This document shows positions 1 through 58,569 of a stretch of 64,000 nucleotides of DNA, in pieces; position 1 is the stretch's first letter, and each line of letters begins with the position of its first letter. The stretch comes from Labia minor. Taxonomy: Eukaryota > Arthropoda > Insecta > Dermaptera > Spongiphoridae. The notes beneath the pieces are model-generated. The model searched no databases. It worked only from the letters and a program-made list of their open reading frames with translations, and had not been told where the DNA came from. The stretch lies in the NCBI GenBank assembly GCA_963082975.1, contig OY720348.1, positions 76,409,719-76,473,718 on the forward strand, given 5' to 3'. Made by a program: the position numbers and the translations under genes.

Positions 1-125
1 ATATATAAATTCGTTTAATTAATAAAATCATAAGTGCTAAACATTATAATTGGCAGTAAAATAGAACAAAACCAAAACGATTCATATAAGACTATTTTTA
101 ATTAATATTATTTTGTTTTTTGTAG

Positions 126-2817
126 CTTATCAACGATGCGTGACAAATCCATTTTGTGCTGGAAATACCGTACAAGGATACATGACTAAATATGCTAAGG
201 TGGGTAAAATAACTAATAATACAAAAAATGTTATACTTCAATTATGTGAACTTGTAATTTGTATAACAACGAATAATGAAATGTTTCGATTCATTTAGTA
301 GTTGGCAATAATATATTGAAATTAATGAAACATATCCCAATTTGTGAACCAATGAGCTTTTCTTTAAGTATCAATAAAAGGGGGGGGGGACGAAGGGAGT
401 GGCCTCTCCGGGTGACAAATTTTGAGTACCAAATACTATTCCAAAGAAACGGAAAAAAATGTTAAATAAAAATTAGTAATTGTTAACAAAACGGGAAGTT
501 TCAGGGATTTGGATGAAAATTTTTTTCCCAGTCGATTCCTTTTCTAATTCCAAAGAAACTTTCCTTATATATTACAACATTTCTCGGTCTCTTCTAGTTT
601 AGGGGATAAAAATTATTAAGGTTTGCATATAAATTCATTGATATTCAATTTAGCTACCATGTCTTATTAGATTGGCCAGCAGAGGGCTCCACTAATTTTC
701 TTGTTTTTTTTTTAGTTCGGTTTCTCTGATAAATTTAATAATTTTTATCTCCTAAACTAGAAGAGACCGAGAAATATTGCATAAGGAAAGTTTCTTGGGA
801 ATTAGAAAAGGAATTGACTGGGAAATTTCATCCAAATCCCTGAAGCTTCCCGTTTTGTAAACAATTATCTAAAAATTTAATAAGTTATTGAATTTTAATA
901 TATATTCAAATAAAATATGAATATATAATTTTATGAATCCAACAAATTATTTAATACTGAATAAATTAAATAGACAGTTATGTGCCTTACCATTCAAAAA
1001 TAGTACCAAGGCGGTTGGTTCCTTGATTTTATTTTATAATAAAACAGAAATAAACTTATTAAAACTTAGAAAGACAAAACTACTAAACATATTTATATTT
1101 ATATTTTCAAATACAAAGTAAAATAAACGATTGATTTTTGAGAATATTAATGGTCGGTTAATAATATGTAATTTTTGTAAAGATCGATTTAAGCAATTAT
1201 AGTAAAAATTCGGAGATGGGGGATGGGGTGCACTTGAACAAAGCGGATAATGATTGGGTAATGAACTGAAGATTATTGGGAACATCATCATTTAAATGTG
1301 TTGCTGCATGTGATCCCTTTTTGGAATTTAAAAAATCTTAAATAAATGGAGGCCTTTTAAGAATCCAAGGTTTGATCCCCCCACTTTAAACCTCCTTAGA
1401 TTACAATTTGATGTTTATAAATTTCTTCCTTAGAAGTTTCAAGATGGCATTTCATTCAACTAACCAGTGATTTAGTGGATCTTGGGTTTGAGTCGTTCAT
1501 GTCTCTTGGTTTCGAAAATATTTTCAATCATTAATATTTTTCATATAATATATTATAATTAAAAGAGAAGCTTTGCCGAATTAAACGATAAACTTTTAAT
1601 AGGACTAATTTTAAATTTTGGATTAGTAGATTGTTTTTGACAACTGAAAAAGTTAGTCACGTTCTGTGTGTTCTTCGATTCCAACTTTATATCATCAATC
1701 GTGGCAAAACGCTTTCCTTTTATTGGTCTCTTCAGCTTTGGGAATAGGAAAAAGTCGCAGTGAATACGGTGGTTGAGGCATGATCACGGTGTTGTTTTTG
1801 GCCAAAAAATCACGAACAAGCAATGATGTGAGCTGGTGCATTATTGTCATGCAGAATCCATGATTTGTTTTTTTCACAATTCCAATCGTATGAGCCGTAT
1901 TGCTTCGTGCAAACGTTGCATAACTTCCTTGTAGTATTACTTATTTTTTTAAAAAAGTAAAAAATCGAAGAACACACAAAACGTAACTCACTTTTTCAGT
2001 TATCAAAAACAAACTACTAATCCTAAATGGCTGATAACGTCAACATTTTAGAAACATATGTGTACCAACATAACAAAAAAAAAAATCGATAATCGAACGT
2101 ACTTTTTTGCCTTCTAATTTTAAAATATCTTTTAAACAGCAAAACCTACTTAAAATCAATAAATATGTATCTTTTTGTTAAAATGAAATATCATATTGTA
2201 AAATTTAATTTATTAATTATTTAGTAATACATTTTATTTAAATTAATTGATTAAATTGTTCTAATTGTTTTACATATGATAATTTATCTATTAGTATATT
2301 ACATTAAGGGGCAGCATGGCTGAGTGGGTAGAGTACTAGATTTCTACACAGGAAGCCTGAGTTCGAATCCCAGCATAGAACTCAAGATTATATATTTATT
2401 TAATTAATAAATAAATAATTAATAAATAAATAAATAATAAATAATAAATAAATAAATATAAAAATTTAATTCAATTTAACATCGGCTGCCCCACCGAAGA
2501 AGGCAAGGGGAAACCACTTCGGTCAAATTTTCCCATGAACACCCTATGACTCCTCTGGAGTTATTAGGGCCACGACACTTCCGCTAGGAAGTTATCGACA
2601 ACGAAGAAGATATTACATTAATTGAAGAGGATTTATCTTTAATTTGATTTTTATTATTTTATTTTTTCAGGACTGCAATGGTGATGGTGCTATCACTTGT
2701 TATGATTATGCGGCACTCCATCATTTAGGAGGATATGGATGTTCAGGGGAAATGAATCGAGAATTTAAATCCAGACTCGAAAATTGTTTATTATCCGTCT
2801 CTTCATTAAATGGATAA
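126..2817 (+). CDS. i-type (invertebrate) lysozyme, 3' part of gene
   Basis: Two exons, 126-199 and 2671-2817, join in phase 0 across a gtgggt donor and a ttttttcag acceptor. The upstream part lies before the window. The product reads CVTNPFCAGNTVQGYMTKYA, then a K, then DCNGDGAITCYDYAALHHLG, then GYGCSGE, and ends ...LENCLLSVSSLNG. This is the conserved C-terminal half of the destabilase/i-type lysozyme domain, with its Cys-rich pattern, the DCNGDG turn and the GGYGCSG motif. The family is secreted, cleaves peptidoglycan between MurNAc and GlcNAc, and some members also have isopeptidase activity. The catalytic Glu and Asp and the signal peptide would be in the missing upstream exons, so activity cannot be judged here. 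The intron (200-2670) is filled by a MITE, a mariner relic and a SINE. Identification is firm; the exact role (immunity or digestion) is not. Confidence 0.92.
477..867. mobile_element. MITE with long imperfect terminal inverted repeats
   Basis: The left arm starts TAATTGTTAACAAAACGGG and the right arm ends CCCGTTTTGTAAACAATTA. The inverted match runs roughly 120-150 bp on each side (the left arm to about 615 and the right arm from about 745), so the whole element can fold into a hairpin around a short centre. A TA at each outer edge fits a Tc1/mariner-type target duplication. No coding capacity. It lies in the lysozyme intron. Confidence 0.7.
1617..2027 (-). mobile_element. mariner relic (internally deleted)
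   Basis: Inverted ends match: left GGATTAGTAGATTGTTTTTG, right (reverse complement) GGATTAGTAGTTTGTTTTTG, and similarity continues for about 60 bp inward. On the minus strand between them are pieces of mariner transposase in more than one frame: MQRLHEAIRL, NKSWILHDN (second catalytic Asp), LLVRDFLAKNNTVIMPQPPY, CDFFLFPKLKRPIKGKRFAT. The usual PDLAP segment before CDFFLF, with the third catalytic Asp, is absent and the frame shifts there, so the transposase is dead. Only about 400 of the usual about 1,300 bp remain. It lies in the lysozyme intron. Confidence 0.9.
2308..2609 (+). mobile_element. tRNA-derived SINE with 12-bp target duplication
   Basis: The element begins GGGGCAGCATGGCTGAGTGG, giving an A box (TGGCTGAGTGGG at 2317-2328), followed by a B box (GAGTTCGAATCCC around 2359-2371), the spacing of a Pol III internal promoter. 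An AT-rich run of TAAATAAA units (about 2396-2462) follows, then a conserved body (AAGGCAAGGGGAAACCACTT) and a tail ending CGACAACGAAGAAG rather than poly-A. The repeat ATATTACATTAA flanks both sides (2296-2307 and 2610-2621), a clean target-site duplication. The head does not close into a good acceptor stem, so this is not a tRNA gene. It lies in the lysozyme intron. Confidence 0.88.
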
Positions 2818-3683: not shown

Positions 3684-6600
3684 ATGTCTTATGAATTTCT
3701 TAAATTAAGGTATTCATTACATTATAAATTTATAATTAAATTTTATTATAATATATATAATTTTTTTTTATTCATATAATATATATAATCAGTGATATAC
3801 AAGAGGATATATCAGCACCAATTTCAAGACAATGGCTTAGTGGGATTATTTCATCGATTTTTAGAAAAAAAACGAATGTTGATCCAAATCTATTTTCTAA
3901 TTGGAATTTTCTAAATAAGTAAGTTAAATAAATATAATTTATAGTAAAATTATAATCAATATATATATATATATATTAGTTTTAATTATTTATTTTTCAA
4001 TTCCTCCGTACCCTCTTCGCGTTTAGCTTACATGATCTTATATGCATTTTATTTACATATACATATCCGGTAAAACTGAGGAATATGACGCGGTTAGGAA
4101 TTTGTTGTGTTTTTTATATTTAGAAAACTAACTCTTTGAGTGTGCAAAAGACAATGTGGGACAATAATAATTTAGTTATAAGCGAACCGTTGAGTAAGGA
4201 GGATTGTTTGTCTGCCATCTTGAAGATCAACACATGCACAATTTTTATTTCAAAGATTCGTAATTTCTTTTCTTTTGCAATTTTTGTAAAAAAAATGTTT
4301 TACCTTTTTGCACATTCTTTAAAACTAATATTAAAACTTATTTATTCAAAAAACACTAATTGTTAGGGATATTACAGAAAAGTTGACTTTTTTTATTTTC
4401 GTAAATTTTAGTAGTTTTTATTATAAGAATAAATTTGTAATTTTTGCTATGAATACGTAATCGTCCTAAGTACAATTAACACTATCATCATTTGAAATTT
4501 GGCAAAAACCCGAATTGTGCGTCCTATCCCTTGGTTTTACCTTATATAATTATATATTTTCATTTATATACTATACTACTTATAGTATAGTAGTATTTTA
4601 ATATATTTAGAAATAAATATCATTTTTTCACTTAAATATAGGTTTTAAAATCTAACTGTCAATCTAAATGTCAACAAATATAAAGTATAAAAAAAAATAT
4701 TTTTAAAACTTGAATTAAAATGAGTAAATTATATTATCTTGGTTTGTATTTTTAGTTTAATTACTCAATTATTAATTACTACTGTTAATTTCACTAACCT
4801 TTATTTGCTGTTTTTTTACTTTATATGTAGGCTGTAAGTTATGTTTAAATAAAGGAGGTGAAATTACATGAATTTTTTAATGAAATAACAAACATTTAAC
4901 ATCAATTATTTAGCTTATAAATTTAACAATTTTCTTAATTCTTATTTAATAATATTATTTAAAATATAACATAAATTTAAATATTATTTATAGCTTTACC
5001 ATTGAAATTAATATTAATTCAATTAATTATTTAATATATTTTAATAATAAAATTTAGTTTAATCAGTGTTTATATTGTCCACTAACCTTTATTTAATTAA
5101 CTCTATGAATATCTGGAATGTGATTAGGTTTACACGCACATCTATTACACTTGCTGGATATTTTCTTTTAATCTTGTTAATTCTTCGTTTTTCGTTACTT
5201 TTATTCTTTTTTGGGAAAGATTTTTATATATATATAACAACACATCTAAATAAAAACTGTTTATACTTGACAATAAAGACCAATATTATATAATTTTATA
5301 ATTATAATTAACAATATCAAATTTCATTTAGTTAATTAATTTTATGCCTTTTTTTTCACCAACCTTATTTAACTAAACATTTTACAACGTAAACAACTAC
5401 TATATTTTAAGTGAAATATTTTGAGACAATGAATATAAAATTAATACTTTGTAAACTTCCACTTCCGGTTTCCGGATATACACCAAAAGTTGATGAATTC
5501 ATGTTTCTGATGCATTAAGTCAGTGATTCTCAACCACTGTGCCGCGGCACTTTTGTGTACCGCGAGATTATCAAAATTATTACAAATGTAAAGAGGCTTT
5601 TAAACATTTCCGACTTTTGTTTCTAAATTTTTTCAATTTGGTACTAAAAAAAAAGGTAAAAGGTTTTTGGGACTAGGCTCTTAAACATTTCCGACTTTTT
5701 TTTATAAATTTAAACTTTTACACTTATCTTTTTCTTTGTGTGCCGCCAAATTTTTAAACCGTTAAAAGTGTGCCGCGGTAAAAAAAAGGTTGAGAATCAC
5801 TGCATTAAGTAAATATACCAAATTTTATTAAAAGCCGTTCTAGCTATACATGTGTATACAGACACACAATGGACAGACAGACAGACATCATGCTAAAAAC
5901 ACATTTTTCTGTTAAGAAAATGCATGATTCGTGGAGATATGTAAAAATCTCCAGATGTGAAATTTAGTGTTAAAACAATAAAATCCCTTCCTATCGTCGG
6001 TCGGTAAAAAATTAGAAATGTCTTCTATCTTATAATATTATGGGGAATTTAATATTCTTTATTTATTTAATATTTTTTTAAGAACTATTTTTATTATTAT
6101 CATTATTATACCCTTTTAATTTGCAAGTATATATTTAAAAGAGTTATTAATATGAATAAGGATATGATAAAGAATATCACATCCATTTTTGATACATTTA
6201 TCTTTGTTTAGAATGATTAATTGCTGGCAAGATGAAAGGGACCGTACAGGATTTTACAAAGCATCCTTGTTTATGACATTTTGGAATTTTTCAAAATGGA
6301 AATTAATTTTAGAGGTGTTCTTTCAATTTATTGGTATGTTGTTTTCAGATATCATTTTGGTATGTATGATATTTAGTAAATACTTATTATTCTTTTTTTC
6401 AATATTTAATTGAATTGTTTATTTTGGGCGTATAAATTTGAAAGCTTGGATTACTTTATGGTTTTCAACATGAAATTTATATTTTTCAATTAATACTAAT
6501 ATTATTTTCAATGAAAATTATTGAAGTGATTATTTTAAATATTAGTCACTTTTTATCCTTCAGGTAATGTAATATGTAATTTTTTAAATATTTCCAATTT

Positions 6601-9600
6601 TTTCTTATTAATTATTTTTTTAGCTTTTGTTAATTTGTAGAAATGCAATTATAAATCGTGTGGCATATCTTCAGTTCGCGATTCAACAAACAATTAATAT
6701 TTCATCGTGTAATGATCAACTTATTGTTCCAAAGGTAAGTAAAACAGTCTTTTTCTATGAAAAATTATTTAAAAAAAAATGAATTTCTATTATTGTATTC
6801 TAAATGAGATAAAATCTATACATATTTTAACCAGCCTTTGTATTTATTTTAAATTAATTATTTAATCTTCAATTAAAGAGGAATTGGAGAGGTTCGATCC
6901 TTCCAATTGGAGGTCTAGGGGAAGGCTCAGCTCTAGAAGGCGGCAAACCGGGCATTTGTCCGGGGCGGAAAATCGGAAGGGCGGCATTTTGTTTATGAAT
7001 GTAATAAATTTTACGAATATAGGGGCGCCAATTTATTCATTTGCCCGGGGCGCCGTAAATGCTAGAGCGGAGGCTGTCAAGGGTCAGAACTAAATTACAT
7101 ATGAAAATCTAAAAATGTTTCTATTTATTGGATATTAATCGGAGCTATTTTCCCAAAATGGAAATATTGTTTTAGTATAGTTTCTCTTATATTATATATT
7201 ATTAGGGAAAGGATATATCATCAGTTTTAACTATTCCATTAGTTACTCTATTCATAAGATAAAATTCACATTCGGTTCATAACCAAACTATTACTAATGA
7301 GGTAATTAATTTCATTCTGACCAAAATATCATGTCAGAGCCTATCACTCTCAGGGGATCTCATCCTTTGAAATTCCTACATTTAAACTAGGGGTCGCCAA
7401 ACTTTGATCATCGACCCCTATATTATTTTTCGAAATCTTCATCTTATTTTATCTATTAACCTTAATATTTAATAAATCAGAAACAATAATTAAATTAGGT
7501 ACATATTTTTTACTTCTTTTCACCCGAATAAATATTATTTAAATTTATTATTTTATTTTCTATAAAGAAAATGATATTAAGTCAATTATAAAAAAATTTA
7601 AAATTTTACATACGCAGTTAGGTATATGTGATTTATCTATTAAGAGCTGTCTTTCCTTCGAATCTCAATCGACCTCCATTCAACCCCTTGGTTGTTAAAT
7701 AGACCCGATAGTCTACTTTGGCGACCCTTGATTTAAACCAATAATATAAAAATAATAAAATTTAAAAAAAAATAATAAATAAATGTTGTAAGAAAGCGAA
7801 AATAATAAAAATTACAAAGAAATAAATTAATTTATTTACATTTCTACAAGTATTATACATTTTTAAAAATCAACGTAAAGAAGAAACACAATAATGAAGT
7901 TTTGAAAATTATCCAAAACAAATTTTAAAATTTATGTTGATTAATTTAAAGCGACCTTTTTGATTTTTCTAAACCTGAAAATAATACAATTATTTTTTGC
8001 ATTACTAATTATTCATAGATTTACTATTAATTGATAAGCTATTAATATATTTCTAAACCTTATATTTTTTCAGATTATTAATGTAATTTTAAAACAACCT
8101 GATTTTGTTTATGACTTTTCAATGAATATTTCAAAATATATATCTGTATTATTATTATCTGTGATTTATTTATTGCTCTTATTTTGGCTTAATAATATCT
8201 ATTTAAATATATTTCTTATAGTATCATTTGGATCTTTAATCACTTTTAAGGTAAGAAAAAATATATTCAAAATATATATAAATTTATATTAATACACATA
8301 TATATTTGTTCTATCAATGAATCTTGAATTTTAATAAAATAGTTATTTAGATAATTCCTGGGAAGATTTTCTACCTTTGCCATGAATATTTATCGAAATC
8401 ATTTATTAAAGAAGTATATTTGGAATACCATTCGTTGATCGATCCGAAGAAAAAAGAATTAATCACTGATTTAAGTAAGGACTAATTTATAATATATTTA
8501 TATATATATATATAGTAATATAGTATTTGGACAAATACGTATTAGAATGAAGAAATATCTAATGGATAATTGGATAATGGTTCAAGCAGGGTCGTGGAAA
8601 GATAAAACTACTTTTGGGACAAAAACAGAGCCTCCACCCTTCCCCCTCCTCATCTTCACAATTTTTACTAAAATTGTTTAAATTAATAATTAAAAAATTA
8701 ATCTAAATACAATCAATAAAAAATAAAAATCTAAATAGAAATAACATCTTATTACTATCTCGCCAGAGATAGTATTGCGATCAGGAAAATTTTCGATGAT
8801 TGTCGAGATTTTTATGTTTTTATACGTTTTGAAGGTCCCTGAGTCATTTACACTATGTATGTCTGTGTGCGTATGTATGCAGACAAGATTATGCAAAAAT
8901 CGGTTTGAGCTAGAATAATGAAATTTGGTACACGGGCAATATTCAAAATTCATAGTTTTCTAGCAACTTTTGAGAAATGTAGCTCTTTAGGAAGAGGGTC
9001 ATTACCTACAACGTTTTCACTTTTTTTCCTCTAAAGTGACCGTAAAAATAAAAATATATGTTTGATAGTTTTTCACATGATTAAAAATTGTATAAAACTG
9101 CTATATATAGAATTTTAGCATGATTGAATGGCTGAAAGTACCGGAATTAATTTTTTAACACTGCAAATCACGCGCCAACACGTGACGTGGTGCCATCAAC
9201 AAAGATCCAAACATGCGCTGGTTTAATAAATATTATTTATTAATTTTAATTTATAACTTATAATCAATTCAATTTAATTTAAATATAATATATATGTTAA
9301 GTAATCCAATTCAAATTTGCGAGATAGTCGACTGGAGACAATCCAGATTATTTAACTTTCCGTCACTTCGGTATAGGATTTGCCGCCCACTAAAATATGG
9401 CCGCCCGGAGTGGTCGCTATCTTCGCCTTCCCCCTTAACACGGCTCTGGGTACAAGAATTGTAAATATTTCAAATGATTACGATGAAAAATTATTATAAA
9501 GATAAAGAGGAGATTGAGGATTGGATTTGGTGTAAAAGAGAAAATTGCTTTTCATACGTGGAAGAAATATTCTTTGATGGTATCCTCATGAAAATCAGGA

Positions 9601-12600
9601 GTGTGCAGAAAAGTCCTAATTGTGTGTGTGACCTGCACTGGCTCTGGCTCACTTATATTATACTTACACTTATATTATATCTTAATTTAACAGAGGAGAA
9701 GGAAAGAGAAAGGAATATCATCCTAAAAAAACGATGACAAAACGAAAAGAGTTAGAAAAAACAATTGGAAGAAGTAAAGGTTTATTTACTTGAAAATGTG
9801 TTAGAACAAAAATTAATTTTGAAAATAATAAGAATAATTTTTAATTAAAAACACTCGGTGAAGTTTCAAGTTGATAATTAAAACTTTGGGGGTAATTCTA
9901 AATCTTCTATATCTATAAAAAATAACCATTACTTTATTTAATATTTTAGATGAATCCGATAAAATAATACAAAAAATCAATAATATTGATATCATCGTTG
10001 AGACGCTAATAAATATTTTTCAGTTAATCTTAATTACGACAATCTTTAATTTAGAAGAGACAATTTTATGGAGTTCTTTTCAGTATAAGGTAAAAAAACA
10101 AAAACTTCTTTCTCTACTTTGAAATTAAAATACACATTCTTGTCTTCATGAATCAACAACCACTTTACACAGAGATTAGGGCAAATAAAATGAGGGAATT
10201 AAAATTAGGGATATGTGGAATGTACGTAACTTATATAAGCCAGGTGCTTTCCAAAACTTAGTAAGGGAAATTAAAAAATAGGTTTTATGATTTTTTCTAA
10301 ATTAAATTACCAAATAAATGTATTTTGAGAATTGAAGACCTTAGGGCTAAACAATGGTAAGCCACAAAATCAAAATATTGAGATATTGCAGTTTAAAGTT
10401 TAGAGAAAAGATATAAAACATTGGGTTTACTACATATATTTCAAATTTGCTCAATATGTAATATCAGTAAAGGGAAAAAGCCAGCAACTATTATCTCTTA
10501 GATATATAATTAAGAATAAAACAATTTTCTGCAAAAGTGGCTTACCACTGTATTGCTCTAAGGTCTTCAATTGAATATTCCATTAAATTCTCTTTTTTTT
10601 AAATAGTTTCTCTTTTTTTCTCCACTATTTAATAACTTTTATATTAAATTCATGTTTTTTTAGGCTTTACCATTAACAATTATTCTTTGTTTTCGTCTTA
10701 AAAGTTATTTGCTGATTATTTGGAGCGGTTTCAAAGATTTCAAACGATTACAGGTGTCATTGAATTTTTTAAAAGTAATTAATATTTATTTATTTGTTTA
10801 TATGTATAAATATATATAGATGGATATTTATAATCTAAGGATATATGTTTGTTATTAGGAAATAGTAATGTATAAAAAAATTATTAAATATGACATTATC
10901 AAACCAAGAAACGATCAAGATATTTATATTCAAATGTCCAATTCATGTTTTAATTGGAATAATAAAAAAATAATTCAACCAAATAATTATTACAGGTATA
11001 AGGTGTATGAAAATCCTTATTTATACATTTCACTAAAATTCTAAAATATTAAATTTTTTTTAGTCAAATACGCCTTCAAAGTGAATGTATGATGTTAAAA
11101 GAAATTTCTTTTACAGTAATAAAGGTAATTCTTAGGAAATCAATTAATTTGTAAAATTGTGTCATTTTAACCCTCACCACACCTTCCTATTTTTTGCTTT
11201 TCAATATTTTCGACCCAATGTATATTATTTGTAAAAATTTAAAATTTTTCACATTTTATTTTAAAGATCTACATTATTAAATAACTAACTCAAACATTTC
11301 TAATACTTGATTAATAAAAATTATATTTTACAAATTTTTTTTTAAACATTCATCACATATTTTATTAATATGTAAATTTTTCCATATATTTTTGGAACAT
11401 ACACACTGTGGGGTGCAGGAGAAAGCGTGGATTGTTGAAGTGAGAAAGATGCGATTTTTTATATATAGTACATTTTATTTACAATGAATATATACAGAGA
11501 ATATAGAGAGATAGAAACGACCCAGGCGCGGAGCTTCTCATATGATGGTGGCACAGACTATGGTGGTAAAGTGGGACGTCTCGTGACTTCGTTTTTACCT
11601 TCGGGAATCCCTCTGTTTTGGGAAGGGGTTCCCTATCTCCTCCCGAGCGCGCCTCCAGGGATACAGATGTGTAGCGCAAGTTACAACAGCCACACACACT
11701 AATTGAGACTTATTATCATTATTACATAAATTACATCTTCCTCTTTTTTATTTTACATTGTAAATTTTCCTGGTGTATTCCGAAACTTCATAAGTATTTC
11801 ACGAGAAGCCTCATTTCTTTCCATATTTTTTCTTCGACTCATGTATATACATTTCTGCTAATTCTAATTCCAATTTTTTAAAAAAGTTCAATCCTCTATT
11901 TCAACTTAAAGTTGAATCAACTTAAGACAATAAAGTATAGGCATTTAAATGATTTTATTCTATGTTTATTAGTTTTATATATAATTAACTTCATAAAATT
12001 TGTGTTAAGGAGTCATAGATAATTTAATCATTATAATATTTATGTATATTTCATTTTTTTTAGAACCATCATTTAGGCATTTATGGAAGATCTGGATCTG
12101 GCAAATCATCCTTTCTTTATGCAATAATGGGGCATTTGGATTTATTAAATGTTGGCACTGTTCATTGCAATGGAAGGGTGGCTTATGTTGGACAAAAACC
12201 ATGGATTATGAAAACCGATGTAAAAGAAAATATTAAATTCTATTATGAACAGGATGATTCTCGGTTGTTGATTTAATTTTTCATAATTAAAACATATTTA
12301 TTGATTTATTCCTTATTTTTTATTATTCAGATATGAAGAAATTATACAATGTTTAGACCTTGAACTTATTGAGCTTATTAATAGTTCTGATATTAAAAGA
12401 CAATCACTATATGCTGTGAAAAATCAACTAATAGAATTAGCAAGAGCTATCTATGCAAATTGGTATACCAAAAGCAAAAATTAAGATTTTACATGATTTT
12501 AGAAATGTTTTATTTTTTAATTTTTTCAGCGATATTTACTTACTAGATGATCCTTTAAATATAATGGACTGTTTAGAAAGAAAACAATTACTTGAAAAAT

Positions 12601-12690
12601 GTTTTAACAAATTTTTATCTAATAAAATTGTAATAATGACTACAGAAAGAAGAGAGGTATACGATTTATGAATTATTATACTATATATAC

Positions 12691-12728
<38 letters not shown>

Positions 12729-15206
12729 AAAACACTAAGAACATTTAAGATTCTTTTCAGTTATTATTATTTTAAATTCATAGGATAAGAAATAAATATT
12801 TATATATATAAATTTCATTTATTTAAATTTAACTATCAAAAATAAATAAGTATTTTAAAAAACAATTAAACAAAGAAAGAAAATTATTAAATTAGTTTTT
12901 TTAAAAATAATAGTTTATTTATTTATGCTTTTATAATTATATAGGAAGTATTTAAAAAATAATAATTTTTACCCTCAGCTTATGGATATATGTAATAAAA
13001 AATATTTATTAAAAGAACAATATTTAGTACAATATTTTGAAAATGATAGTGAAGAAGTGGAACAAGAAGATGAACATGAGTAAATATTTTTTATTATTAT
13101 ATCTAGGAATGAGAAATTCTAATAATTTTATTCTGTTTTTAATATTTTATATATATCGAAATAGTATTTCATTTATGTTTCAGCATGGAATCTTTACATA
13201 TGAATGATGACAATGATAAAAAAAAAAGAAATTATTTTACTCTGTATTCTAAATTAATTTATCCATTAGGAATACTTCAACTAATTTTAAGTATTGTTAT
13301 ATCTGCAATGCCTTTATATAATTTTGTAAGTAAAGAATAATAATAATTTTTTTATTAGTTATTTGTTAGTAAACAATTAAAAAAAAGATATAATATTTAA
13401 TTAAGAGTAAAATAAAATTATTTTTTTATAATTTTATAATTTAAAAATTTATAAATGTCAAATGTAAAAATTATGAAATGCTAACTAGATATTCTTTTTT
13501 AAAATTGTCATTTAAACTCAACTCTCCTTCCCAATCTACTTAAAATATTTATATAGTCTAAGTACATTTTTGAAATTCCCTTCTAATTATTACATTCACC
13601 ATTTTTTCCAACCGAATTAACACACATTTTATTATTTATTTATTCAATTTCTTTTCAGGTATTTGATTGGTTAATTGATTATTACTTAAAATCGTCAGCT
13701 TTCTCGGTATTTTCATTTCATTAAATAATTATTTCACTTTAATGAATACTTTAACAATTAATTTTATATTTTCAGACTAAAGTTTGCCTTTATCTATTTG
13801 GCACAATTATATTAATAATAACAATATTATTACATTCATTTATAAAAAATATCCTATTAACGTTTTCATTAAAGAAAAAAGAACAAAGTATTAGACAGTG
13901 CAACGAGAACAAATTCAATTCTAAAATAAATAAAAATTATTTTTTGAAAAGTATATCTCTTATACCTATATAATAAATACTGCATATAATAGAATATATC
14001 ATTTCTTTGTTTTTTTTAGATTACAATGAGAGAATAACTAGATTACTACTGTTGCAAATTTTTGAAATGTCATTATTTGTTTTGATCGAATTAACACTAA
14101 CTATATATTTATTTTGGAAATGTATTATACCACTTTCATTATTTATTTTTTTAGGAATAATAATCTTCAAGATCAGGTTTTTTTCCTTTTAATAATAAAT
14201 AATCCATATAAAGTATTATTAAAAAATAATTATAAATAATTAGGGTGTTAAAAACAAAATTATCGTTAAAAAGGGAGTAAGATAATATCATTGGACATGT
14301 AAAATGTTTCTATATTTTTCTACATTAATTGTTGCAATTAAGATTCTAAGCAAACATAAATTATATATTTCACTTTCGATAAAATTGAATAAAGTTGTTT
14401 GTTAAAATAAAAGTAAGAAATATATGTAGATTAAAAAGTGACAAATGACTTATTATGTTTAGTCACATTCTTAACAGAAAAAAAGCTTTATTAGAGAATA
14501 AACCAATAAAGTCTATAAATAAGAAACAATAAGTACAATATTTAAGATGTTTTTTTAAATATTTAAACTTCTTCATAGAATATTACAATTAAATTATTAT
14601 ATTCCATTAAAAGATAGTTAAGTTTAATTATTAAAATAATAATTAATTCAAGAGTGTGATATCTTTCTCTAGATTGAATTATAAACAAAATATGAACGAA
14701 GAAATAATTTCAAAAATTGACAATTTTTATATATTATTAAATTTAATGCAAGGAAAAACAATATTTCAAGCATTTAATAACTATGAAATATTATATCAAA
14801 GGTATACAAAAATCAATTTTTTCTTTAATCTAAATGTATAAATATTATATGTATTATAAAATATTTGTTTTCATTTTAGAATTGAATTAGCTTGCTTAAC
14901 TTTAACACGGTATTTATTTATAAACAATACAATCATTTATTCCATACATTTAATTAAAGATATATTAACAGGTAATTAAATAGTATGTATATATGTACTA
15001 TTTCTATAAATATATTTAATAAAATAAGATTCAATTTTATTTTTCTAGTGATTGGAATATTTATTTGTTTTTATTTGATTGTATATGAATTTAATAAGAA
15101 GATTTATGTTGCAATAATAATTTTATTTCAAATTCCATTTCATTTAAGTGAAATAATAAATAATTTGGAATTGATTGAACAAAATAAAAGATGGGAAAAT
15201 AATTAA
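3684..15206 (+). CDS. ABCC/MRP-like transporter lacking the second nucleotide-binding domain
   Basis: Twenty-one exons read in agreeing phase with no internal stop: 3684-3709, 3793-3918, 6212-6359, 6624-6734, 8074-8250, 8351-8474, 9950-10089, 10664-10774 (or 10753), 10859-10995, 11064-11124, 12064-12263, 12331-12462, 12530-12656, 12979-13079, 13184-13325, 13659-13706, 13776-13950, 14020-14176, 14673-14801, 14880-14971, 15049-15206. The total is 2,622 nt, 873 residues. Order: hydrophobic TMD1 (about 80-320), NBD1 (about 367-570) with Walker A GRSGSGKS (395-402), Q-loop YVGQKPWI and Walker B IYLLDD (500-505), then TMD2 (about 590-860). The ABC signature LSGGQ reads LYAVK (480-484), and the H-loop His is Thr (about 536). 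The protein ends just after TMD2, where NBD2 normally starts; full ABCC proteins have about 1,300 residues or more. AATAAA lies 16 bp after the stop. The substrate is unknown. The start MSYEFLKL is inferred from phase and is the least certain part. Confidence 0.88.
5455..6010 (-). repeat. Dispersed repeat family A, partial copy
   Basis: On the minus strand this reads like the first half of the copies at 32259-32902 and 62571-63217: it starts ACCGACCGACGATAGGAAGG (near 6005), then the segment around ATGATGTCTGTC, an accumulation of GACA/GTCT units, and ACCGGAAGTGG at the far end. It is interrupted by the hAT MITE at 5521-5802. Non-coding. Confidence 0.75.
5521..5802. mobile_element. hAT (Charlie-like) MITE
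   Basis: The ends are CAGTGATTCTCAACC and its exact inverse GGTTGAGAATCACTG; GTGCCGCGGCA and TGTGCCGCGGTA lie just inside. An 8-bp duplication CATTAAGT flanks it (5513-5520 and 5803-5810). 282 bp, no coding capacity. It split a family A repeat, so it is the younger of the two. Confidence 0.92.
6735..8073. other. Intron 4 of the ABC transporter, with a GC-richer relic
   Basis: At about 6884-7093 the DNA becomes GC-richer (CTAGAAGGCGGCAAACCGGG, then GGGGCGCCAATTT), unlike its surroundings. It looks like part of a degraded transposon but no ends or target duplication are visible. The intron also carries an hAT MITE (7388-7730). Confidence 0.45.
7388..7730. mobile_element. hAT MITE
   Basis: Left end TAGGGGTCGCCAAACTTTGA, right end (reverse complement) CAAGGGTCGCCAAAGTAGAC. 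A perfect 8-bp duplication ATTTAAAC flanks it (7380-7387 and 7731-7738). 343 bp, no transposase. It lies in intron 4 of the ABC transporter. Confidence 0.9.
8587..9448. mobile_element. hAT element carrying a nested family B repeat
   Basis: Ends are CAGGGTCGTGG and (reverse complement) CAGAGCCGTG. The flanks GGTTCAAG (8579-8586) and GGTACAAG (9449-9456) match at 7 of 8 positions, the expected hAT duplication. The interior is almost wholly a family B copy (8751-9346) in reverse orientation, so the original hAT core was only about 265 bp. It lies in intron 6 of the ABC transporter. Confidence 0.8.
8751..9346 (-). repeat. Dispersed repeat family B, copy 1
   Basis: Matches the copies at 24999-25636 and 30898-32063. 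On the minus strand it begins with the segment ending TCTCCAGTCGACTATCTCGC, contains CGCGCCAACACGTGACGTGG on the plus side, and ends in the palindrome ACTATCTC...GAGATAGT. A CAAATTTCAT...TAGCTC module followed by CA/GACA tetranucleotides lies in the second half. No coding capacity. Confidence 0.85.
9474..9737 (+). other. Open frame in intron 6, not recognised
   Basis: An 87-codon open frame (MITMKNYYKDKEEIEDWIWC...) lies between exons 6 and 7 of the transporter. It has no splice sites in compatible phase with its neighbours (exon 6 joins exon 7 at 9950 perfectly) and resembles no family I know. It is most likely chance. Confidence 0.2.
10330..10572. mobile_element. Short MITE with about 34-bp inverted ends
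   Basis: The left end AATTGAAGACCTTAGGGCTA continues to a shared GGTAAGCCAC; the right end reversed reads AATTGAAGACCTTAGAGCAA and then the same GGTAAGCCAC. The interior has no coding capacity. No certain target duplication; family not assigned. It lies in intron 7 of the ABC transporter. Confidence 0.7.
11407..11694. mobile_element. Probable solo LTR
   Basis: A 288-bp GC-richer block that starts TGTGGGGTG and ends AGCCACA (TG...CA), flanked on both sides by the 5-mer CACAC (11402-11406 and 11695-11699). A TATATATA stretch and an AATAAA (reverse strand) lie inside. This is the layout of a single LTR left after recombination. No internal sequence or second LTR is present. The low-complexity flanks make the duplication weak evidence. 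It lies in intron 10 of the ABC transporter. Confidence 0.5.
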
Positions 15207-15651
15207 AAAAAAATATAAAATAATAAATAAATAAATCAAAGAAATAAGTCATTTTGTTTTATAAAGCAAAATATATTTAAAAATTTTTAACATAATTAAA
15301 AATAATAAACAGTTTTAATTTGATGTGATAATCAATAAAAATAAATTAAACAGTGAACATATATTATTTTATTTAACTCTAAATTGGTTAATCTGTACAT
15401 ATAACAAAAAAATAAATATTATATATAGATATTCTATTTCTCTTAATCTAAAACTTTTAATTGTCACATTTTTCATTAGATAATTTTGTTTATAAATAAC
15501 AGAAAGCAATTCAAACCATTATTAATATTATATTTTTAAAATTAGTCAGGCACTCAAAAATGTTAAAATAGAAAAATAATATTTAAATCAATTTTATAAT
15601 TTTATTTTATATTCTAATATTTTCTAAACATTGTCTTAATGATTAGCATTT
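15207..15651. other. Convergent spacer between the ABC transporter and FBXO9
   Basis: 445 bp between two stop codons facing each other. AATAAA at 15222-15227 is a likely poly-A signal for the transporter; several reverse-strand AATAAA-like sites near 15600 could serve FBXO9. There is no sign of an NBD2-like exon for the transporter here on either strand. Confidence 0.6.
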
Positions 15652-18600
15652 TTATAAAGGCTTTTCTGATTCAGCTGAATAACTTTTAACCCTTGAAAAC
15701 ATCAAAGGGGGATAACGATTGATATCGTTTAAATCAAAACAAACATTTTTTTTATCACCGGATTTTAAGGTGTATTGCATCGTGTATTTTTCCCAAATGA
15801 GGGTGTGATTATGTCTTCCTTTATAATTTTGGATGCTCAAATCCTACAAAAAATTAAAAGAAAAAAAAAAATGATAATATTATTTTAAAAAATAAAAATA
15901 AATATACTTACTATATTATAAGTTTGTTCTGCGAATGTTTCAAAATTCGATTCTCTCTTACGTTGATGAAAACGATTATTCATTTTATGATGCGAATCAG
16001 ATTGTGTTAGAATCAGAGAAGCTTTATCCCCTTGTAACTTATAATGACCTATTAAAACACCTCCATTTTTAGGAACTCGAGTACGAAGTTGTGAAACAAC
16101 TAATTTAGGTTCTTCCGCAGTTGTTAACATAATTACCAAACCATCAGGAAAGAATCTATCAAAACAATTAATTTTTAAGTAAAATTAAATTAAAAGAGAA
16201 AATTTGAAATATTTATATTTATATAAATATATTTAATTTGAAAATACAATTTTATAATGTATAAAATAAAAATAATAAAAGAATTTACCTTAAATATCGG
16301 TAATAAACTATTAATTGATATAAATTATTATGAAAAACATCTTGATAATTTTGAAAGCTGTTTTCTCCCTGGCGATAATAAAGAGTTTTACCTATATAAC
16401 AACCATTATAATTTAATCTAGGCCGTTGAATGAACATTTGTCTCCAAGAATCATACGGATCCGGTGAATCACAATTAATATTCCAAATCCTTAGAAAGGA
16501 AAAAGAAAAGAAATTAATTAAATAATATATTAATTAATGTGTGAATTAGTTACTTATTGCAGACAAGACGCCATATTTCAGAATCTCTACAACATAAATA
16601 TAATCCTCTACAGACACTTGAACATATTTCCAAGGATCGCAAATCAAGTTCAGATGATACCACCCAACGCAAGATATAAATTATAATTTCAGGAGGAAGT
16701 GCAGAAATATGTAAACTCTAAAAATAGAATACAAATTTATTTTTTTAAAAATTAATATTCACTAATTTATATTAAATTTAAAAATATTATTTATTTTATA
16801 TTTTAAAAAAGAGATTTATATGTGATAGATAATATTTATAGGATTCTTTTATATTAATAATTTTTGAATTCAGTGGTTTTGTTTTAATCAATTTAAAAAT
16901 AATATTTGATACGGTTTTACGTAATAAAAAGAAAATCCTTACGTTGTACCAAATATAATTTTATTTTTATGAGAGAAAAACAAAAAATAATAGAAATGAA
17001 AAACTAAACAACGAGACAAAATAAATTTTTTCACGTGTTTAAAACAATCTAATTATTAAATCAAATGTATTTAATAAAAACAATAATAATACTAAATACA
17101 TAAGGTTGGATAATAACAATAATAATAATGATTTTAATTATTTCATTTCTAATTTAATGAATTTATTGTTCATGAAATATTGAAATACCTTCTGGTCTTC
17201 TTTAGCGAATATTAAACCGTTTGAACTATTAAAAATCAAATTTTTTTCATATTTTAGAATCGATGTTAATTCATCTAAATTGATAGAGTCAGATTCTTTA
17301 TAATTCAAATTATTTTCCTCTATAAATAAAAAAATACAATTATTCTTTAATTCAAGAACATATTACTAACTTAATATATCTAAATATTTTAAGATGTAAA
17401 ACTGGCTCAAAATTATTACTTTTTTTATCACTTAATTAAATCTCACAAGTTGTGTAAACAATTAAAAGCCATCGTCGATGTAAAAAAGTTTTTAGATAAG
17501 ACAAATTTTAAAAATTATTATTAAAATTTATTTTATTAACAATTATAATAATAAATTATCTATATCAAAATTTCTTAAAATTTATATATAATTAAACAAA
17601 AAAAAAAATTAAATAATACTCTTAACTTATAATAAATATTTAAGTGTTTTTACATATAATATCTATAAATAATATTAAATTATTGCTAAATAAAATTGGC
17701 TTAAAGAATCTTATTTGAACATGTAAAAGGAAGAGGTAGATATATACATAATAGTATTAATTACAATTTATTGAATTTTGTAATTTTTTATTCCTTTTTT
17801 TTCCTTGATATTACACAAGATAATTTATCATTTACAAAATTAATTCTCCAAGTAGTCGATAAAAATATATAATATTCTAATGTTTTCCAACCAACCTGTA
17901 ATATAGACACATTCTTTCGGTTCAGTTTTATTGCTTTGTGATATTTTTAATTCAATATCAGGAACCAATTGAACGGCTTTACGATAGCAGTTCATAGCCT
18001 CACATATTTTTCCATTTTGTTCAAGTTCTGATCCTTTTAAAAATAAACTTCGTGCCTAGAAAAATAAAAAATAGTTATTAGAAAAATAGAGTTTTACTAT
18101 TTATATAGTTTAATGTTCTTATAGACAATATATATATAACTAGTTTTTGCTTATAATAACCACCTCTTTTCAATGACCATTTATCTATTTTCCTATACTG
18201 ATTAATAAATATTGATTTATTTTATTACTTCACTATATCTATTTTACTTTAAATATCCAAACTTAACCACTCAGAAATCAATAAACTAATAACAAATTGC
18301 GAGACCATACTTACTTTAATTTCAAGTGAATATTCATTTCTTTTATCTTGGTCTTCATTTAATAAATTATTGGAATGATGTGCCGTATTAGCAAGATCTT
18401 CGTTTTTTATCATTACTATCTATTCGAATTAAATACACAATTAGAGAGAATTATTTATTATAAAGAAATAATGTTAGAAAATTATTTTTATAATTATTCA
18501 ACCTATCATTTAATTCACATAAAAATTATATTCAGTTCAGGCTTTTGTCTATTTATATATTTAATTATTTTTGAAGGGTAAATATTATAAAAATAATTTA

Positions 18601-18865
18601 TAAAATTAATTAATTTTTAAAAAAATGAACATAAAAGATAATATATTATACCTCCGATGTGGATTTGATATTTATTAGTTTGTCTTCTTGTTCTGATAAT
18701 TTATTTTCATTTAAAGTATTACAAGAATTTTCAGAAGTATATCCTTCAGCATATTCATTAGAAGTCTAATTAAAATAAAATGGACATATTTAAATAATTA
18801 TCAAATAATAGATTAGGAACATAATTAAAATGAATTTTTAAGTAGAAATAAAAATACTTTACCAT
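15652..18865 (-). CDS. FBXO9: F-box only protein 9 (SCF ubiquitin-ligase substrate receptor)
   Basis: Nine coding exons, 5' to 3' on the minus strand: 18863-18865, 18652-18765, 18315-18419, 17896-18055, 17189-17319, 16554-16717, 16289-16489, 15912-16155, 15652-15843. The total is 1,314 nt (437 residues), all phases agreeing; human FBXO9 has about 447. Residues about 75-127 form the TPR-like segment ([15 protein letters not shown]...[12 protein letters not shown]). The F-box is at about 178-222 ([20 protein letters not shown], then [17 protein letters not shown]). The C-terminal domain holds [40 protein letters not shown] and the terminal [10 protein letters not shown], matching the family's SYTAFSERPL ending. 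In other animals the F-box binds Skp1 and the protein recruits phosphorylated Tel2/Tti1. The start codon stands alone before the first intron (ATG then gtaaag). The N-terminal acidic region is the least conserved part. It is tail-to-tail with the ABC transporter. Confidence 0.95.
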
Positions 18866-21088
18866 AATTATTATATCTAGATATTTCAATTTCTATAATA
18901 TTTCAGGGTTCGAGTTCACGGTCAGAATATCTTATTACAAAGGAATAAAGAAAGCTCGAATAAATAGACAGGAAAAAGTGAATTAATTTAATGTGATCAA
19001 AGCTAAAAATAAAATAAATTAATTTAATAATTAATTTTAATTATATTATATTAATAATTATTTAGAGAGTATATGACAAGTGATTGAGATAAAGAAAGAT
19101 AATAAGTGATTTTAAAATGTGATGAAATATGATTTCATGAATGTTTTTATATGGTCTGTTTATATAGATACAATTACATTTGTTTTCAAAAAAAATAATT
19201 AAAATAAAAACTAACCTTGTTAAATTGTTATTAAACATTGCCAATAAGACGTTAATTTTGATTGTGATTATAATGTGTAGGTGTCAAAAATTGGAGACAG
19301 ATTATATGTACTTATGATAATAATATTTGTATTCTGAAATAATATGCAAAATAAACACTCTCAAACTATGTGATAAGAATTAAATTATTGATCGTGATTA
19401 TTACGAATTATATAAATAAATAATTCGATTTTCGGGATTTTTACATTGATTTTCAAAAAGATACCGCAATGTATCTTTTTTAATAAACAGTTAATTAATT
19501 ATATAACATTTAATATTGAACTGATGTTCGGTTTTTTAATTTTAATATATCAAGGTCAAAATAGGATAGCTATTTCGTATTAATTTTTGTCTGATGACCA
19601 TTTCATTCTAAGCAAAGGGTTGAAATGAATGGCAGTGCTTCTTGTGTTTAAATTAGGAACTAAAAATTTAAAGAAAGCGGGAAAGTATCAAAAAACTTTC
19701 AATTTATTCCATTTCTTTCTTTCTCTAATAGTAAAGTGATAGTTTCATTTTTTTTAATTTAAATTTTATTCTACGAATGACTGTGTGTGTGTGTGTGTAT
19801 ATGAAAGGAATTTATGTATTTATTGATGTTTTTCACGGATTGATTGATTGGATGAGTGAATATAAAATTATGTATTATATAATATCAATTCATATTTATT
19901 TAAATTTTAAACATAATCTGCTTATAAAATCATTGATAAAAAATATATTTCTATAATAATTATAGGTTTCAACTTAACAGGAAATTAAGTTTATAAGTAT
20001 TTTTAAAACAAAAAACTTTCCTTAATTATATTATCACTGTCCAAGACCTCTCCAAAACAGGAGTCAATATCGACATGCTGCGGAATTGTGAAGAGCTTTC
20101 TTCCCTTCTGTCCATCTTAATAAAACAATAACAATAAAAAAACAAAATTCTTTCACTACCGGAGGAGCCGTTTGGAGATCACACACTCAGAGGATAATAT
20201 GGAGAAGAAGAGGAACGTGGATTCGTCAGTTTTTTTCCTCATGATATCGGAGCCATTCTTTTTAATATAAAAGAAAATCTCAAAGAATTAAATAAACGAA
20301 TGGAGGAAAAATAGATGAAAGAATTTATAGGGAGAAATAGAAAAGGGATAAAAATTTAAAATAAAAAATAAAAATTAGAAGGCTATGGGAAAATAAAAAA
20401 CGTATTGTGATAAAAGGAATCAAGGAAATTGGAAGAGGGGGAGGATAAAAACAGATTTGTATGGGTACGAATGGAACAATGGAATGTTAAAATAAATATA
20501 TAAAACATAATATATATAATTTATATTTATGAAATATTTTTAATAGTTTCATAGAAATTGGGCAGTTTCATTGGTGTATCCGCTTGATACACCTAATCTC
20601 TAAGCGGCTTGAAAGGCCTAAAATTTTATTTTAAATTAAAATTTCTATTCCTGAAATGATACCGCTAATCAGCAAATCAAATCGAAAATTAAATTTTAAA
20701 TTTCGTTGTGAATGTTTACAATTCAATTCTATAGTAATATATTCCAGATATGAGTCCAGATGATATTTGCATTTTATACCAATTTAAATTGATTAGTACA
20801 TAAAAAGTACTATGATTTATTTTTTGATGATTGATTATCTAAAATCTCCAAAACCAAAAAAACCTTGAATGCTAGATTTTTTTTATTACTTAGGTTATCA
20901 TATATCATTATATATATATGTTGGTTTAGATTTCGGTGAGTTTATTATTACTATTATTATTATTATTATCATTTTCCTCAGAAATCCTCAACACTCTCTA
21001 GTGTCAGTTAATTCTTTTTTGAGAACTAGGCTCACGGTTGCGATGGAGAGGGAATTCACCCTAACCCACAACAACCTTTATATTTCCT
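18866..21088. other. Intergenic, upstream of FBXO9
   Basis: The FBXO9 promoter should lie near 18870-19400. Nothing else is recognisable apart from a (GT)n run near 19784-19798 and a piece at about 20807-20875 that recurs near 45154-45228 (AAAAAGTACTATGATTTRTT ... CTTGAATGCTAGAT), suggesting an unnamed low-copy repeat. No gene is supported. Confidence 0.5.
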
Positions 21089-30897: not shown

Positions 30898-31905
30898 AGC
30901 TGGAGTGTCTCCACTCGACTATCTCGTAATTTGAATTGGATTATATAACATATGTTATATTTAAATTATGTAAATTTAATTAATTAAATTATAAATTAAA
31001 ATTAATAAATAATATCTATTAAACCAGCGCGTGTTTGGCTCTTTGTCGATAGCACCACGTCACATGCTGGCGCGTGATTCGCAGTGTTAGGCCCGATTCA
31101 CACACAAGTGGCGTATGGCACTGGCGTGGTTCTGGCGTGGAACAGGTTTGTTAATGTAATTGCATTAGCTTATGACTCAATACCCACAGATATGGCGTGT
31201 TGGAGGCGTGGAAAATGGCACGAAGACCACTCCACTCCGATGCGACCGGTGGCTCGTAGGGACTTTGCACGCCACTTCTAGACCATTTCATTATTCATTT
31301 CAACTTTTTAATCAAATTTTATATTTTGCCAGCATTTAATTATAAAAACGTGTTTTTTGTGCTACTTTTTTTATGCTACTTTAAATGTTATTAATTTATT
31401 TAAAAAAAAATCAAAGTAAACAAAATAAAAATAAAATATAAAATTAGCATAACACTGAACTACTATAAAAATAATATTAAAAAATATATTATATATTAAA
31501 ATCTTACGTGAAAATCCAATTATGAGATCAAATTTTCTTAATTAAAATAATTTACTCACATAATCTTAAGAACCACGCCAGAACCACGCCAGTGCCATAC
31601 GCCACTTGTGTGTGAATCGGGCCTTAAAAAAATTAATTCCGGTACTTTCAGTCATTCAATCAAGCTGAAATTCTATATATAGCAGTTTTATACAATTTTT
31701 AATCATATGAAAAACTATCAAACATATATTTTTATTTTTACAGTCACTTTAGAGGAAAAAAAGTGAAAACGTGGTAGGCAATGACCCACTTCCGGTTGAG
31801 CTACATTTCTCAAAAGTAGATAGAAAACTACGAATTTTGAATAATGCCCGTATACCAATTTTAATGATTCTAGCTCGAACCGTTTTTGCGTAATCTTGTC
31901 TACAT

Positions 31906-31948
<43 letters not shown>

Positions 31949-32063: not shown

Positions 32064-32258
32064 CAATACCTCCCTTACTATCGTCGGTCGGTAAAAAGGT
32101 GGGCGCCAGTTCAGAAAGGTTGGAAACCACTGCCATAAATGATTGATTTATTAAATATGTATGAATTTTTTGTTTGAGATATATTTATTGCTAATATTTT
32201 ATTATTATTATTGTTTTTTCAAAATTAAAAATTTAATTTAAATATAATAATTATTTTT

Positions 32259-58536: not shown

Positions 58537-58569
<33 letters not shown>

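What the first reader, a model, noticed from the sequence alone, without database searches (positions are those of the whole stretch)
3684..15206. ABCC-type transporter that ends before the second ATPase domain
Seen: 21 exons with agreeing phases give one 873-residue frame with TMD1-NBD1-TMD2 order and a stop at the TMD2/NBD2 linker (…LELIEQNKRWENN). Known: full ABCC proteins need two NBDs to form the ATP sandwich. Inference: either a three-domain protein that works non-canonically or partners another NBD, or a degenerating gene that kept its frame. The conserved frame over 21 exons argues against a simple pseudogene.
Basis: partly seen in the sequence, partly recalled or inferred. Interest (0 to 1): 0.8.

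Follow-up and report, generated by a model that had tools for sequence, protein, structure and literature searches.

The report
Transporter-like gene missing its second engine
A gene for a membrane protein of the ABCC pump family has lost one of its two ATP-burning units and kept only the ATP-holding half of the other, so it probably cannot pump; whether it does a new job or is slowly dying cannot be settled without RNA data and related species.

Summary
The finding holds in outline. On the + strand of an unnamed (by gene content animal) genome, positions 3684-15206 encode one open frame with hydrophobic helices around one ABCC-type NBD1; it stops at the TMD2/NBD2 boundary. My preferred model has 22 exons, 900 aa and 6+6 helices. 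No NBD2 was found in the 64 kb or in four sampled 10-kb stretches, and a convergent FBXO9-like gene follows closely. A search of the same genome found no close second copy. Four of four fully fetched ABCC genes there keep NBD2. New here: NBD1 is altered in a pattern. Of positions invariant in six other NBD1s, the ATP pocket keeps 14 of 15, but the parts facing the missing NBD2 (X-loop, LSGGQ, D-loop, H-loop) keep 3 of 16. The NBD2-facing loop CL2 is 25 residues short; CL1, CL3 and CL4 are near normal. Best reading: an ABCC4-derived, ATP-binding, non-pumping protein reduced to the "minimal folding unit" known from CFTR. Caveats: TMD homology is not significant by sequence, the added exon has a weak acceptor, and there is no expression or orthologue evidence. 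Decay is the main rival.

The parts
3684..3709 (+). exon 1 (start codon ATG 3684)
3793..3918 (+). exon 2, N-terminal lasso-like region; following intron (phase 2) resembles an intron of same-genome ABCC4-type gene B, by eye
6212..6359 (+). exon 3, TM1; weak collinear similarity to ABCC5 (E 0.27)
   Evidence: for; against:
8074..8250 (+). exon 6, TM3-TM4
8351..8474 (+). exon 7, CL2 (about 25 residues shorter than in ABCC4)
9950..10089 (+). exon 8, TM5
10664..10753 (+). exon 9, TM6; flanking introns (both phase 0) at gene B positions by eye
10859..10995 (+). exon 10, linker to NBD1
11064..11124 (+). exon 11, start of NBD1
12064..12263 (+). exon 12, NBD1 with Walker A GRSGSGKSS (12085-12111) and Q-loop Gln (12193-12195)
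12331..12462 (+). exon 13, NBD1; X-loop shortened, signature LSGGQ replaced by LYAVK (12407-12421)
12530..12656 (+). exon 14, NBD1; Walker B DIYLLDDP (12531-12554) kept; D-loop SA lost; H-loop His position is Glu (12645-12647)
12979..13079 (+). exon 15, end of NBD1 and acidic linker
13184..13325 (+). exon 16, linker and TM7
13659..13706 (+). exon 17, after TM7 (DWL..Y, like DWWLSYW of ABCC4, by eye)
13776..13950 (+). exon 18, TM8 and CL3 (alternative donor at 13887 shortens it by 21 aa)
14020..14176 (+). exon 19, TM9-TM10
14673..14801 (+). exon 20, CL4 (LMQGKTIFQAF, like SLQGLWTIRAY of ABCC4, by eye)
14880..14971 (+). exon 21, start of TM11
15049..15206 (+). exon 22, TM11-TM12 and stop codon TAA at the TMD2/NBD2 boundary
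15222..15235 (+). overlapping AATAAA polyadenylation-signal-like words 16 bases after the stop (common by chance in this AT-rich DNA)
15652..18890 (-). convergent FBXO9-like gene (approximate extent, by eye) whose 3' end closes the space where NBD2 exons would lie

Best explanation
A gene derived from the ABCC4-type branch, without a close second copy in its genome, encodes a membrane protein TMD1-NBD1-TMD2 of about 900 aa (shown: the frame, NBD1 and no NBD2 found nearby; inferred: exact splicing and descent). With no NBD2 and no NBD1 signature, X-loop or H-loop it cannot form the ATP sandwich, so it is very probably not an ATP-driven pump (inferred from established ABC mechanism). It keeps an apparently intact nucleotide pocket and NBD1-facing cytoplasmic loops CL1 and CL4 of normal length. 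My most likely mechanism is that ATP bound to lone NBD1 acts as a structural or sensing ligand that folds and holds the 12-helix bundle, as in the CFTR minimal folding unit, and the bundle works without transport cycles, as a receptor, scaffold or leak/gated pore (inferred).
For: NBD1 is strongly ABCC. Pocket positions kept 14/15, partner-facing positions 3/16, Fisher p 3.9e-5; 0.0013 if the conserved helix after the signature is counted as partner-facing. 6+6 hydrophobic helices in the 22-exon model; 6 of 500 shuffles reach 6 in TMD1, 0 of 500 in TMD2. Spacing follows ABCC4, r 0.94 over the 8 gaps that could be compared. CL2 is 73 residues against 98-101 in human ABCC4 and four same-genome genes; CL1 77 (74-77), CL4 89 (91-92 in the four that cover it). 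Introns flanking the TM6 exon match gene B in place and phase (by eye). One stop (terminal) in the coding frame against 98 and 94 in the other frames of the exons. No close paralogue among 28 own-genome matches. Genes B, C, D and F, 4 of 4 fully fetched, keep NBD2. CFTR lacking NBD2 is called a minimal folding unit (PMC10611759, passages); insect ABCC2 lacking NBD2 still mediated Cry toxin action in Sf9 cells, with Cry1F potency reduced 15-fold and Cry1Ab not significantly (PMC8878193, passages).
Against: TMD sequence homology is not significant: no Pfam or NCBIfam match; shuffled sequences often score as well against a TMD profile (TMD1 376 of 500 block and 479 of 500 full shuffles; TMD2 63 and 447 of 500). 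Codon-position composition of the TMD exons lies within control noise. The hydropathy method finds only 9-10 peaks in ABCC4 and in genes B, C and D, so a count of 12 is not itself a hallmark. Exon 4 has a poor acceptor, and the stronger acceptor at 6624 would drop TM2 and leave 11 peaks. Classes pocket/partner were assigned by me after seeing the alignment. Loop lengths were measured from hydropathy peaks in the window but from alignment anchors in the paralogues. Exons were chosen to be open. No RNA, protein or orthologue evidence. The NBD1 branch is very long, 1.20 against 0.15-0.44, which also fits relaxed selection.
Confidence: 0.55

Rival explanations
1. A gene in decay: after loss of NBD2 the copy is under relaxed selection, still open by recency or by the choice of exons, and makes no useful protein.
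For: TMDs have drifted beyond sequence recognition; very long NBD1 branch; weak acceptor of exon 4, whose skipping leaves 11 helices; intact ABCC genes exist elsewhere in the genome.
Against: Drift that deep without selection should leave stops: about 68 expected in 900 codons at saturation and P(0) about 1e-6 at one fifth of saturation (Poisson, with exons chosen to be open). Loss inside NBD1 is patterned, not random. Helices at ABCC spacing survive.
Confidence: 0.28
2. NBD2 is supplied from elsewhere: splicing to a distant NBD2 exon, or pairing with a separate NBD protein.
For: The genome has further ABC_tran matches not examined one by one (20 matches listed, 19 of 157 candidates scored, a lower bound).
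Against: No NBD2 found in the window or in four 10-kb stretches around it; a convergent gene follows within about 450 bases; NBD1 has lost most of the signature, X-loop, D-loop and H-loop positions that would meet a partner; NBD2-facing CL2 is short.
Confidence: 0.07
3. Assembly or modelling artefact: the true gene has an NBD2 that was lost in assembly, or the TMD exons are false.
For: AT-rich DNA makes exon chains easy to draw; the TMD1 region is only partly recovered ab initio and by a small margin over controls.
Against: The window sits inside a 76.9-Mb contig; the gene has a proper end and a close convergent neighbour; 4 of 6 TMD2 exons are recovered exactly ab initio with splice models trained on NBD introns only; NBD1 itself is degenerate where NBD2 would bind.
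Confidence: 0.06

Closest known systems
ABCC4/MRP4-type full transporters (human ABCC4; same-genome gene B, C10:1.35 Mb, L024+L015+L016)
   Same: NBD1 sequence, no TMD0 seen, helix spacing, CL1 and CL4 length, TM6-exon intron positions
   Different: No NBD2 found; most of signature, X-loop, D-loop and H-loop of NBD1 lost; CL2 25 residues shorter; TMD sequence unrecognisable
CFTR-deltaNBD2 (engineered; residues 1-1197), the CFTR minimal folding unit
   Same: Same domain set TMD1-NBD1-linker-TMD2; called the minimal folding unit, and reported to open rarely without ATP (PMC10611759, PMC4956468 and PMC4645605, passages)
   Different: Made in the laboratory; NBD1 there keeps its motifs (recalled); channel activity here unknown
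Insect ABCC2 lacking NBD2 (engineered Spodoptera frugiperda variant; Bombyx and beet armyworm precedents cited there)
   Same: ABCC protein without NBD2 that still served as toxin receptor in Sf9 cells (PMC8878193, passages)
   Different: Otherwise normal ABCC2; receptor role here untested
Salmon louse ABCC entries listed with topology TMD1-NBD1-TMD2 (Lsa.22810, 979 aa; Lsa.3521, 926 aa)
   Same: Same predicted domain set in an arthropod survey (PMC4587908, passages of Table 2)
   Different: Drosophila best hits at E 0.0, so well conserved; Lsa.3521 has a longer genome model (1597 aa) and may be partial
SUR1/SUR2 (ABCC8/9)
   Same: Non-pumping ABCC proteins that sense nucleotide (recalled)
   Different: They keep both NBDs and partner a K channel (recalled)

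Membership tests
ABCC subfamily (by descent) | ABCC-type NBD1 sequence | tested here: met
   Best PDB hits ABCC5, ABCC4, CFTR, 1e-32 to 1e-31; TIGR01271 6.7e-31, TIGR00957 1.6e-23, both far below their curated cut-offs
ABCC subfamily (by descent) | ABC exporter TMDs detectable by profile (PF00664 or NCBIfam) | tested here: not met
   No PF00664 match listed at E<=10; none in NCBIfam for either TMD alone
ABCC subfamily (by descent) | 12 helices, 6 before and 6 after NBD1, at ABCC spacing | tested here: inconclusive
   6+6 in the 22-exon model; 5+6 in the 21-exon model; which is spliced is unknown
Functional ABCC transporter (full) | Second nucleotide-binding domain | tested here: not met
   (window and four 10-kb stretches)
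Functional ABCC transporter (full) | NBD1 signature LSGGQ | tested here: not met
   LYAVK; S, G, G and Q positions all changed
Functional ABCC transporter (full) | Walker A, Q-loop and Walker B of NBD1 | tested here: met
   14 of 15 invariant pocket positions kept
Functional ABCC transporter (full) | ATP hydrolysis and transport | not testable with these tools
   needs biochemistry
Pseudogene | Stops or frameshifts in the frame | tested here: not met
   none before 15204-15206 in the chosen exons; exons were chosen to be open
Pseudogene | Neutral evolution (dN/dS near 1) | not testable with these tools
   no orthologue held; own-genome search shows no close paralogue

The most novel reading that the evidence does not exclude
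A naturally occurring, selected ABCC protein that gave up pumping by discarding NBD2 and nearly every NBD1 surface that would face it, while keeping the ATP pocket: a lone-NBD ATP-sensing membrane protein built on the ABCC minimal folding unit.
Probability: 0.35. Interest if true: 0.7.

Novelty: new variant of a known kind. Interest (0 to 1): 0.5.

Why it matters
If the gene is selected, it is a natural version of a construct that I otherwise found only as laboratory-made (CFTR or ABCC2 without NBD2). It would show what an ABCC protein keeps when pumping is no longer needed: the ATP pocket and the loops that touch NBD1, not the dimer face. That makes a testable case for ATP as a folding or sensing ligand rather than fuel. 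If it is decaying, it is an ordinary dying gene.

Tried and rejected
Sequence proof of TMD homology was tried and failed: phmmer, Pfam and NCBIfam, pairwise shuffles (TMD1 semiglobal reached by 9 of 300 full and 16 of 300 block shuffles, but that best alignment was an end overlap of 46 positions and says nothing; TMD2 74 and 94 of 300), four- and five-sequence profiles (one search failed on an option clash and its zeros mean nothing).

Codon-position composition gave a clear signal for NBD1 only. The spliced alignments to human ABCC4 and to gene B wander outside the NBD region and were used only for single splice sites. One search used splice models trained on all of my sites (circular), and some controls overlapped a retroelement frame; both were replaced.

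A missing exon in intron 7 was sought, because CL2 is short. With both splice scores at or above zero the only candidates there were 8767-8856 and 8767-8874; they lie in what looks like a dispersed repeat, since a similar reading (MFLYxLKVPESF) appears at 31721-32074 (by eye). Rejected. One more candidate (4756-4833, intron 2) was not followed. An exon with a site as weak as that of exon 4 would have escaped this filter.

Descent from the nearest ABCC gene (D, 77 kb upstream) was rejected: it is MRP1-like (by eye) and no closer to the window gene than the others. The NBD tree has the window on a long branch and was not used for placement. A scan of viral contigs confirmed no relative.

Full report
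What was checked. I rebuilt the gene from the DNA. Twenty-one exons on the + strand join in phase to one frame of 845 or 866 aa, depending on the exon-17 donor, with 11 hydropathy peaks. Comparing this with ABCC4 by eye showed a gap where TM2 should be. An exon at 6445-6563, with the next acceptor moved from 6624 to 6641, fills it and keeps the frame: 22 exons, 900 aa, 12 peaks. Spliced alignments to human ABCC4 and, in one of two runs, to a same-genome ABCC4-type gene chose the 6563|6641 pair, but they used only the 3' end of the exon. The other run and the ab initio chain chose 6624. The added exon has a poor acceptor (-7.7, -1.4), and 6624 scores higher than 6641 (5.4 against 1.7). Skipping exon 4 keeps the frame but leaves 11 peaks. 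This is the weakest point of the model.

Is it a gene? NBD1 is beyond doubt (ABC_tran 9.5e-14; ABCC5, ABCC4 and CFTR at 1e-32 to 1e-31). For the rest, a search for open exon chains with splice models trained only on the NBD introns found a chain in the TMD2 region scoring 34.4; 0 of 200 dinucleotide shuffles and 0 of 20 control stretches reached it (best control 18.8), and 4 of its 6 exons are identical to mine. In the TMD1 region the best chain (39.2) also beat 40 of 40 shuffles and 14 of 14 overlapping control stretches, but the best control scored 35.2, and the chain shares only two exons exactly with my model (penalty 6). Over the chosen exons the coding frame holds one stop (the last), the other frames 98 and 94.

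Are the flanking parts TMDs? By sequence, not shown. Pfam gives nothing for TMD1 and only an unrelated family at E 9 for TMD2; NCBIfam gives nothing for either. TMD1 alone hits only ABCC5 chains in the PDB, six rows, at the right place but with E 0.27-0.35. TMD2 alone hits only adipogenin at E 0.68. Small ABCC profiles do not separate them from shuffles. Codon-position composition of the TMD exons is within control noise. By topology, the 22-exon model shows 6 peaks before and 6 after NBD1. Six of 500 shuffles reach 6 for TMD1 and 0 of 500 for TMD2, and there are 1.5 and 1.9 peaks per 100 aa against 0.41 in 314 non-coding open frames. The same method finds only 10 peaks in ABCC4 and 9, 10 and 9 in genes B, C and D, so it undercounts real ABCC helices and the number alone proves little. 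Spacing correlates with ABCC4 over the 8 gaps where both have peaks (r 0.94). The introns on both sides of the TM6 exon sit at the same places and phase as in gene B, though that exon is 90 bases here and about 111 in gene B (by eye); most other introns do not match.

Where is NBD2? Not found in the 64 kb, nor in four further 10-kb stretches around it (L004, L021, L022, L023). The stop falls where TM12 ends. An FBXO9-like gene on the other strand (named from recall; FBO_C E 4e-4, below its cut-off) ends about 450 bases on. The window is C10:76409719-76473718 of a 604-Mb assembly in 71 contigs, about 415 kb from the contig end. That the organism is an animal is my inference from gene content. 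A protein search of that genome gave 28 matches at E<=0.1: 19 lie in the window gene itself, and the other 9 are NBD1-level matches at E 1.2e-11 or weaker. I modelled five other ABCC genes: B (ABCC4-type) and C, D, E and F (MRP1-type; types judged by eye). The four that were fetched whole (B, C, D, F) have NBD2; E was fetched only in part. The ABC_tran family search listed 20 matches, with 19 of 157 candidates scored, and did not list the split exons of the window gene, so orphan NBDs are not excluded.

What happened to NBD1? Against six other NBD1s (human ABCC4, part of ABCC5, genes B-E) there are 60 invariant positions, and the window keeps 33. In Walker A, Q-loop and Walker B it keeps 14 of 15. 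In the X-loop, signature, D-loop and H-loop it keeps 3 of 16. Elsewhere it keeps 16 of 29. The contrast of the first two has Fisher p 3.9e-5. I assigned the classes from recalled structure after seeing the alignment; counting the fully kept helix after the signature as partner-facing (8 of 21) gives p 0.0013, and pocket against all else (19 of 45) gives 0.0006. The signature is LYAVK and the X-loop glycines are gone. Loss of the H-loop His alone would not be unusual (CFTR NBD1 lacks it; recalled).

Loops. In CFTR CL1 and CL4 touch NBD1, CL2 and CL3 touch NBD2 (PMC10611759, Fig. 1 legend). In the window CL1 is 77 residues (74-77 in the five others) and CL4 89 (91-92 in four; E was not fetched that far). 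CL2 is 73 against 98-101 in five. CL3 is 62 against 67 in four and 63 in E, so it is not clearly short (41 with the other donor, 13887). So one of the two loops whose partner is missing is clearly shortened, and neither of the NBD1-facing loops is. This rests on one gene and on the model of exons 6-8; window lengths come from hydropathy peaks, the others from alignment anchors.

Mechanism. A canonical ATP site needs the Walker motifs of one NBD and the signature of the other (established). This protein has neither a second NBD nor a signature, so no sandwich is possible with itself or, most likely, with a helper. What is kept is what lets lone NBD1 bind nucleotide and dock on CL1 and CL4. CFTR without NBD2 is called its minimal folding unit (PMC10611759, passages) and reportedly opens rarely without ATP (PMC4956468, passage; constructs lacking NBD2 also named in PMC4645605, passage). 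Spodoptera ABCC2 without NBD2 still conferred Cry1Ab and Cry1F sensitivity on Sf9 cells, Cry1F 15-fold weaker by EC50 (PMC8878193, passages). I therefore favour a folded, ATP-liganded, non-pumping membrane protein. Receptor, scaffold and pore cannot be told apart here.

Against this. The long NBD1 branch, unrecognisable TMDs and the weak exon-4 acceptor all fit relaxed selection. Without orthologues or RNA I cannot exclude a gene on its way out, and I give that 0.28.

In print. Eight searches of the open-access library showed no natural ABCC protein with this combination in their listings; I read passages of six of the listed papers and listings of the rest. A salmon louse survey lists two ABCC entries as TMD1-NBD1-TMD2 (PMC4587908, passages), so the bare architecture has been recorded before. 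Most subscription papers are not in that library.

Noticed in passing
window 120-2817 (+): 3' exons of an invertebrate-type lysozyme (Pfam Destabilase E 2.5e-20 on two pieces joined by eye) just upstream of the ABCC-like gene.
   Followed up: partly
window 15652-18890 (-): FBXO9-like gene (F-box and TPR-like pieces by eye; FBO_C E 4e-4, below its cut-off), convergent with the ABCC-like gene.
   Followed up: partly
window 41802-44732 (+): 977-codon open frame of a gag-pol retroelement (Retrotrans_gag E 2e-7 on its first 575 residues) that looks internally shortened in the reverse transcriptase by eye.
   Followed up: no
window 49496-53286 (-): Pieces of a non-LTR element with endonuclease-like, reverse-transcriptase-like and RNase-H-like frames in separate reading frames (assigned by eye; one 196-residue piece had no Pfam match).
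   Followed up: no
window 57473-58974: GC-rich island with a 26-base minisatellite (5.9 copies at 58094-58247) and a 28-base repeat present twice about 1.4 kb apart (57473-57535 and 58912-58974), so probably a duplicated segment.
   Followed up: no
window 38972-39158: Perfect tandem repeat of a 101-base AT-rich unit, 1.9 copies, perhaps very recent or an assembly effect.
   Followed up: no
window 2308-2600 (+): tRNA-like head followed by a tail, like a SINE (by eye; ARAGORN found no tRNA gene in the window).
   Followed up: no
window 8745-8918 and 31721-32074: Similar translated stretches on opposite strands (MFLYxLKVPESF...), probably copies of a dispersed repeat; one lies in intron 7 of the ABCC-like gene (by eye).
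   Followed up: no
L002+L003 (C10:76330001-76350000, reverse strand): MRP1-like ABCC gene 77 kb upstream of the window; the first part of TMD1 aligns poorly in the model and the NBD2 signature reads LSDGE.
   Followed up: partly
G000 C4:75701785 and C4:75719005: Two ABC_tran matches with identical scores and 412-codon open frames 17 kb apart, possibly a recent duplicate.
   Followed up: no
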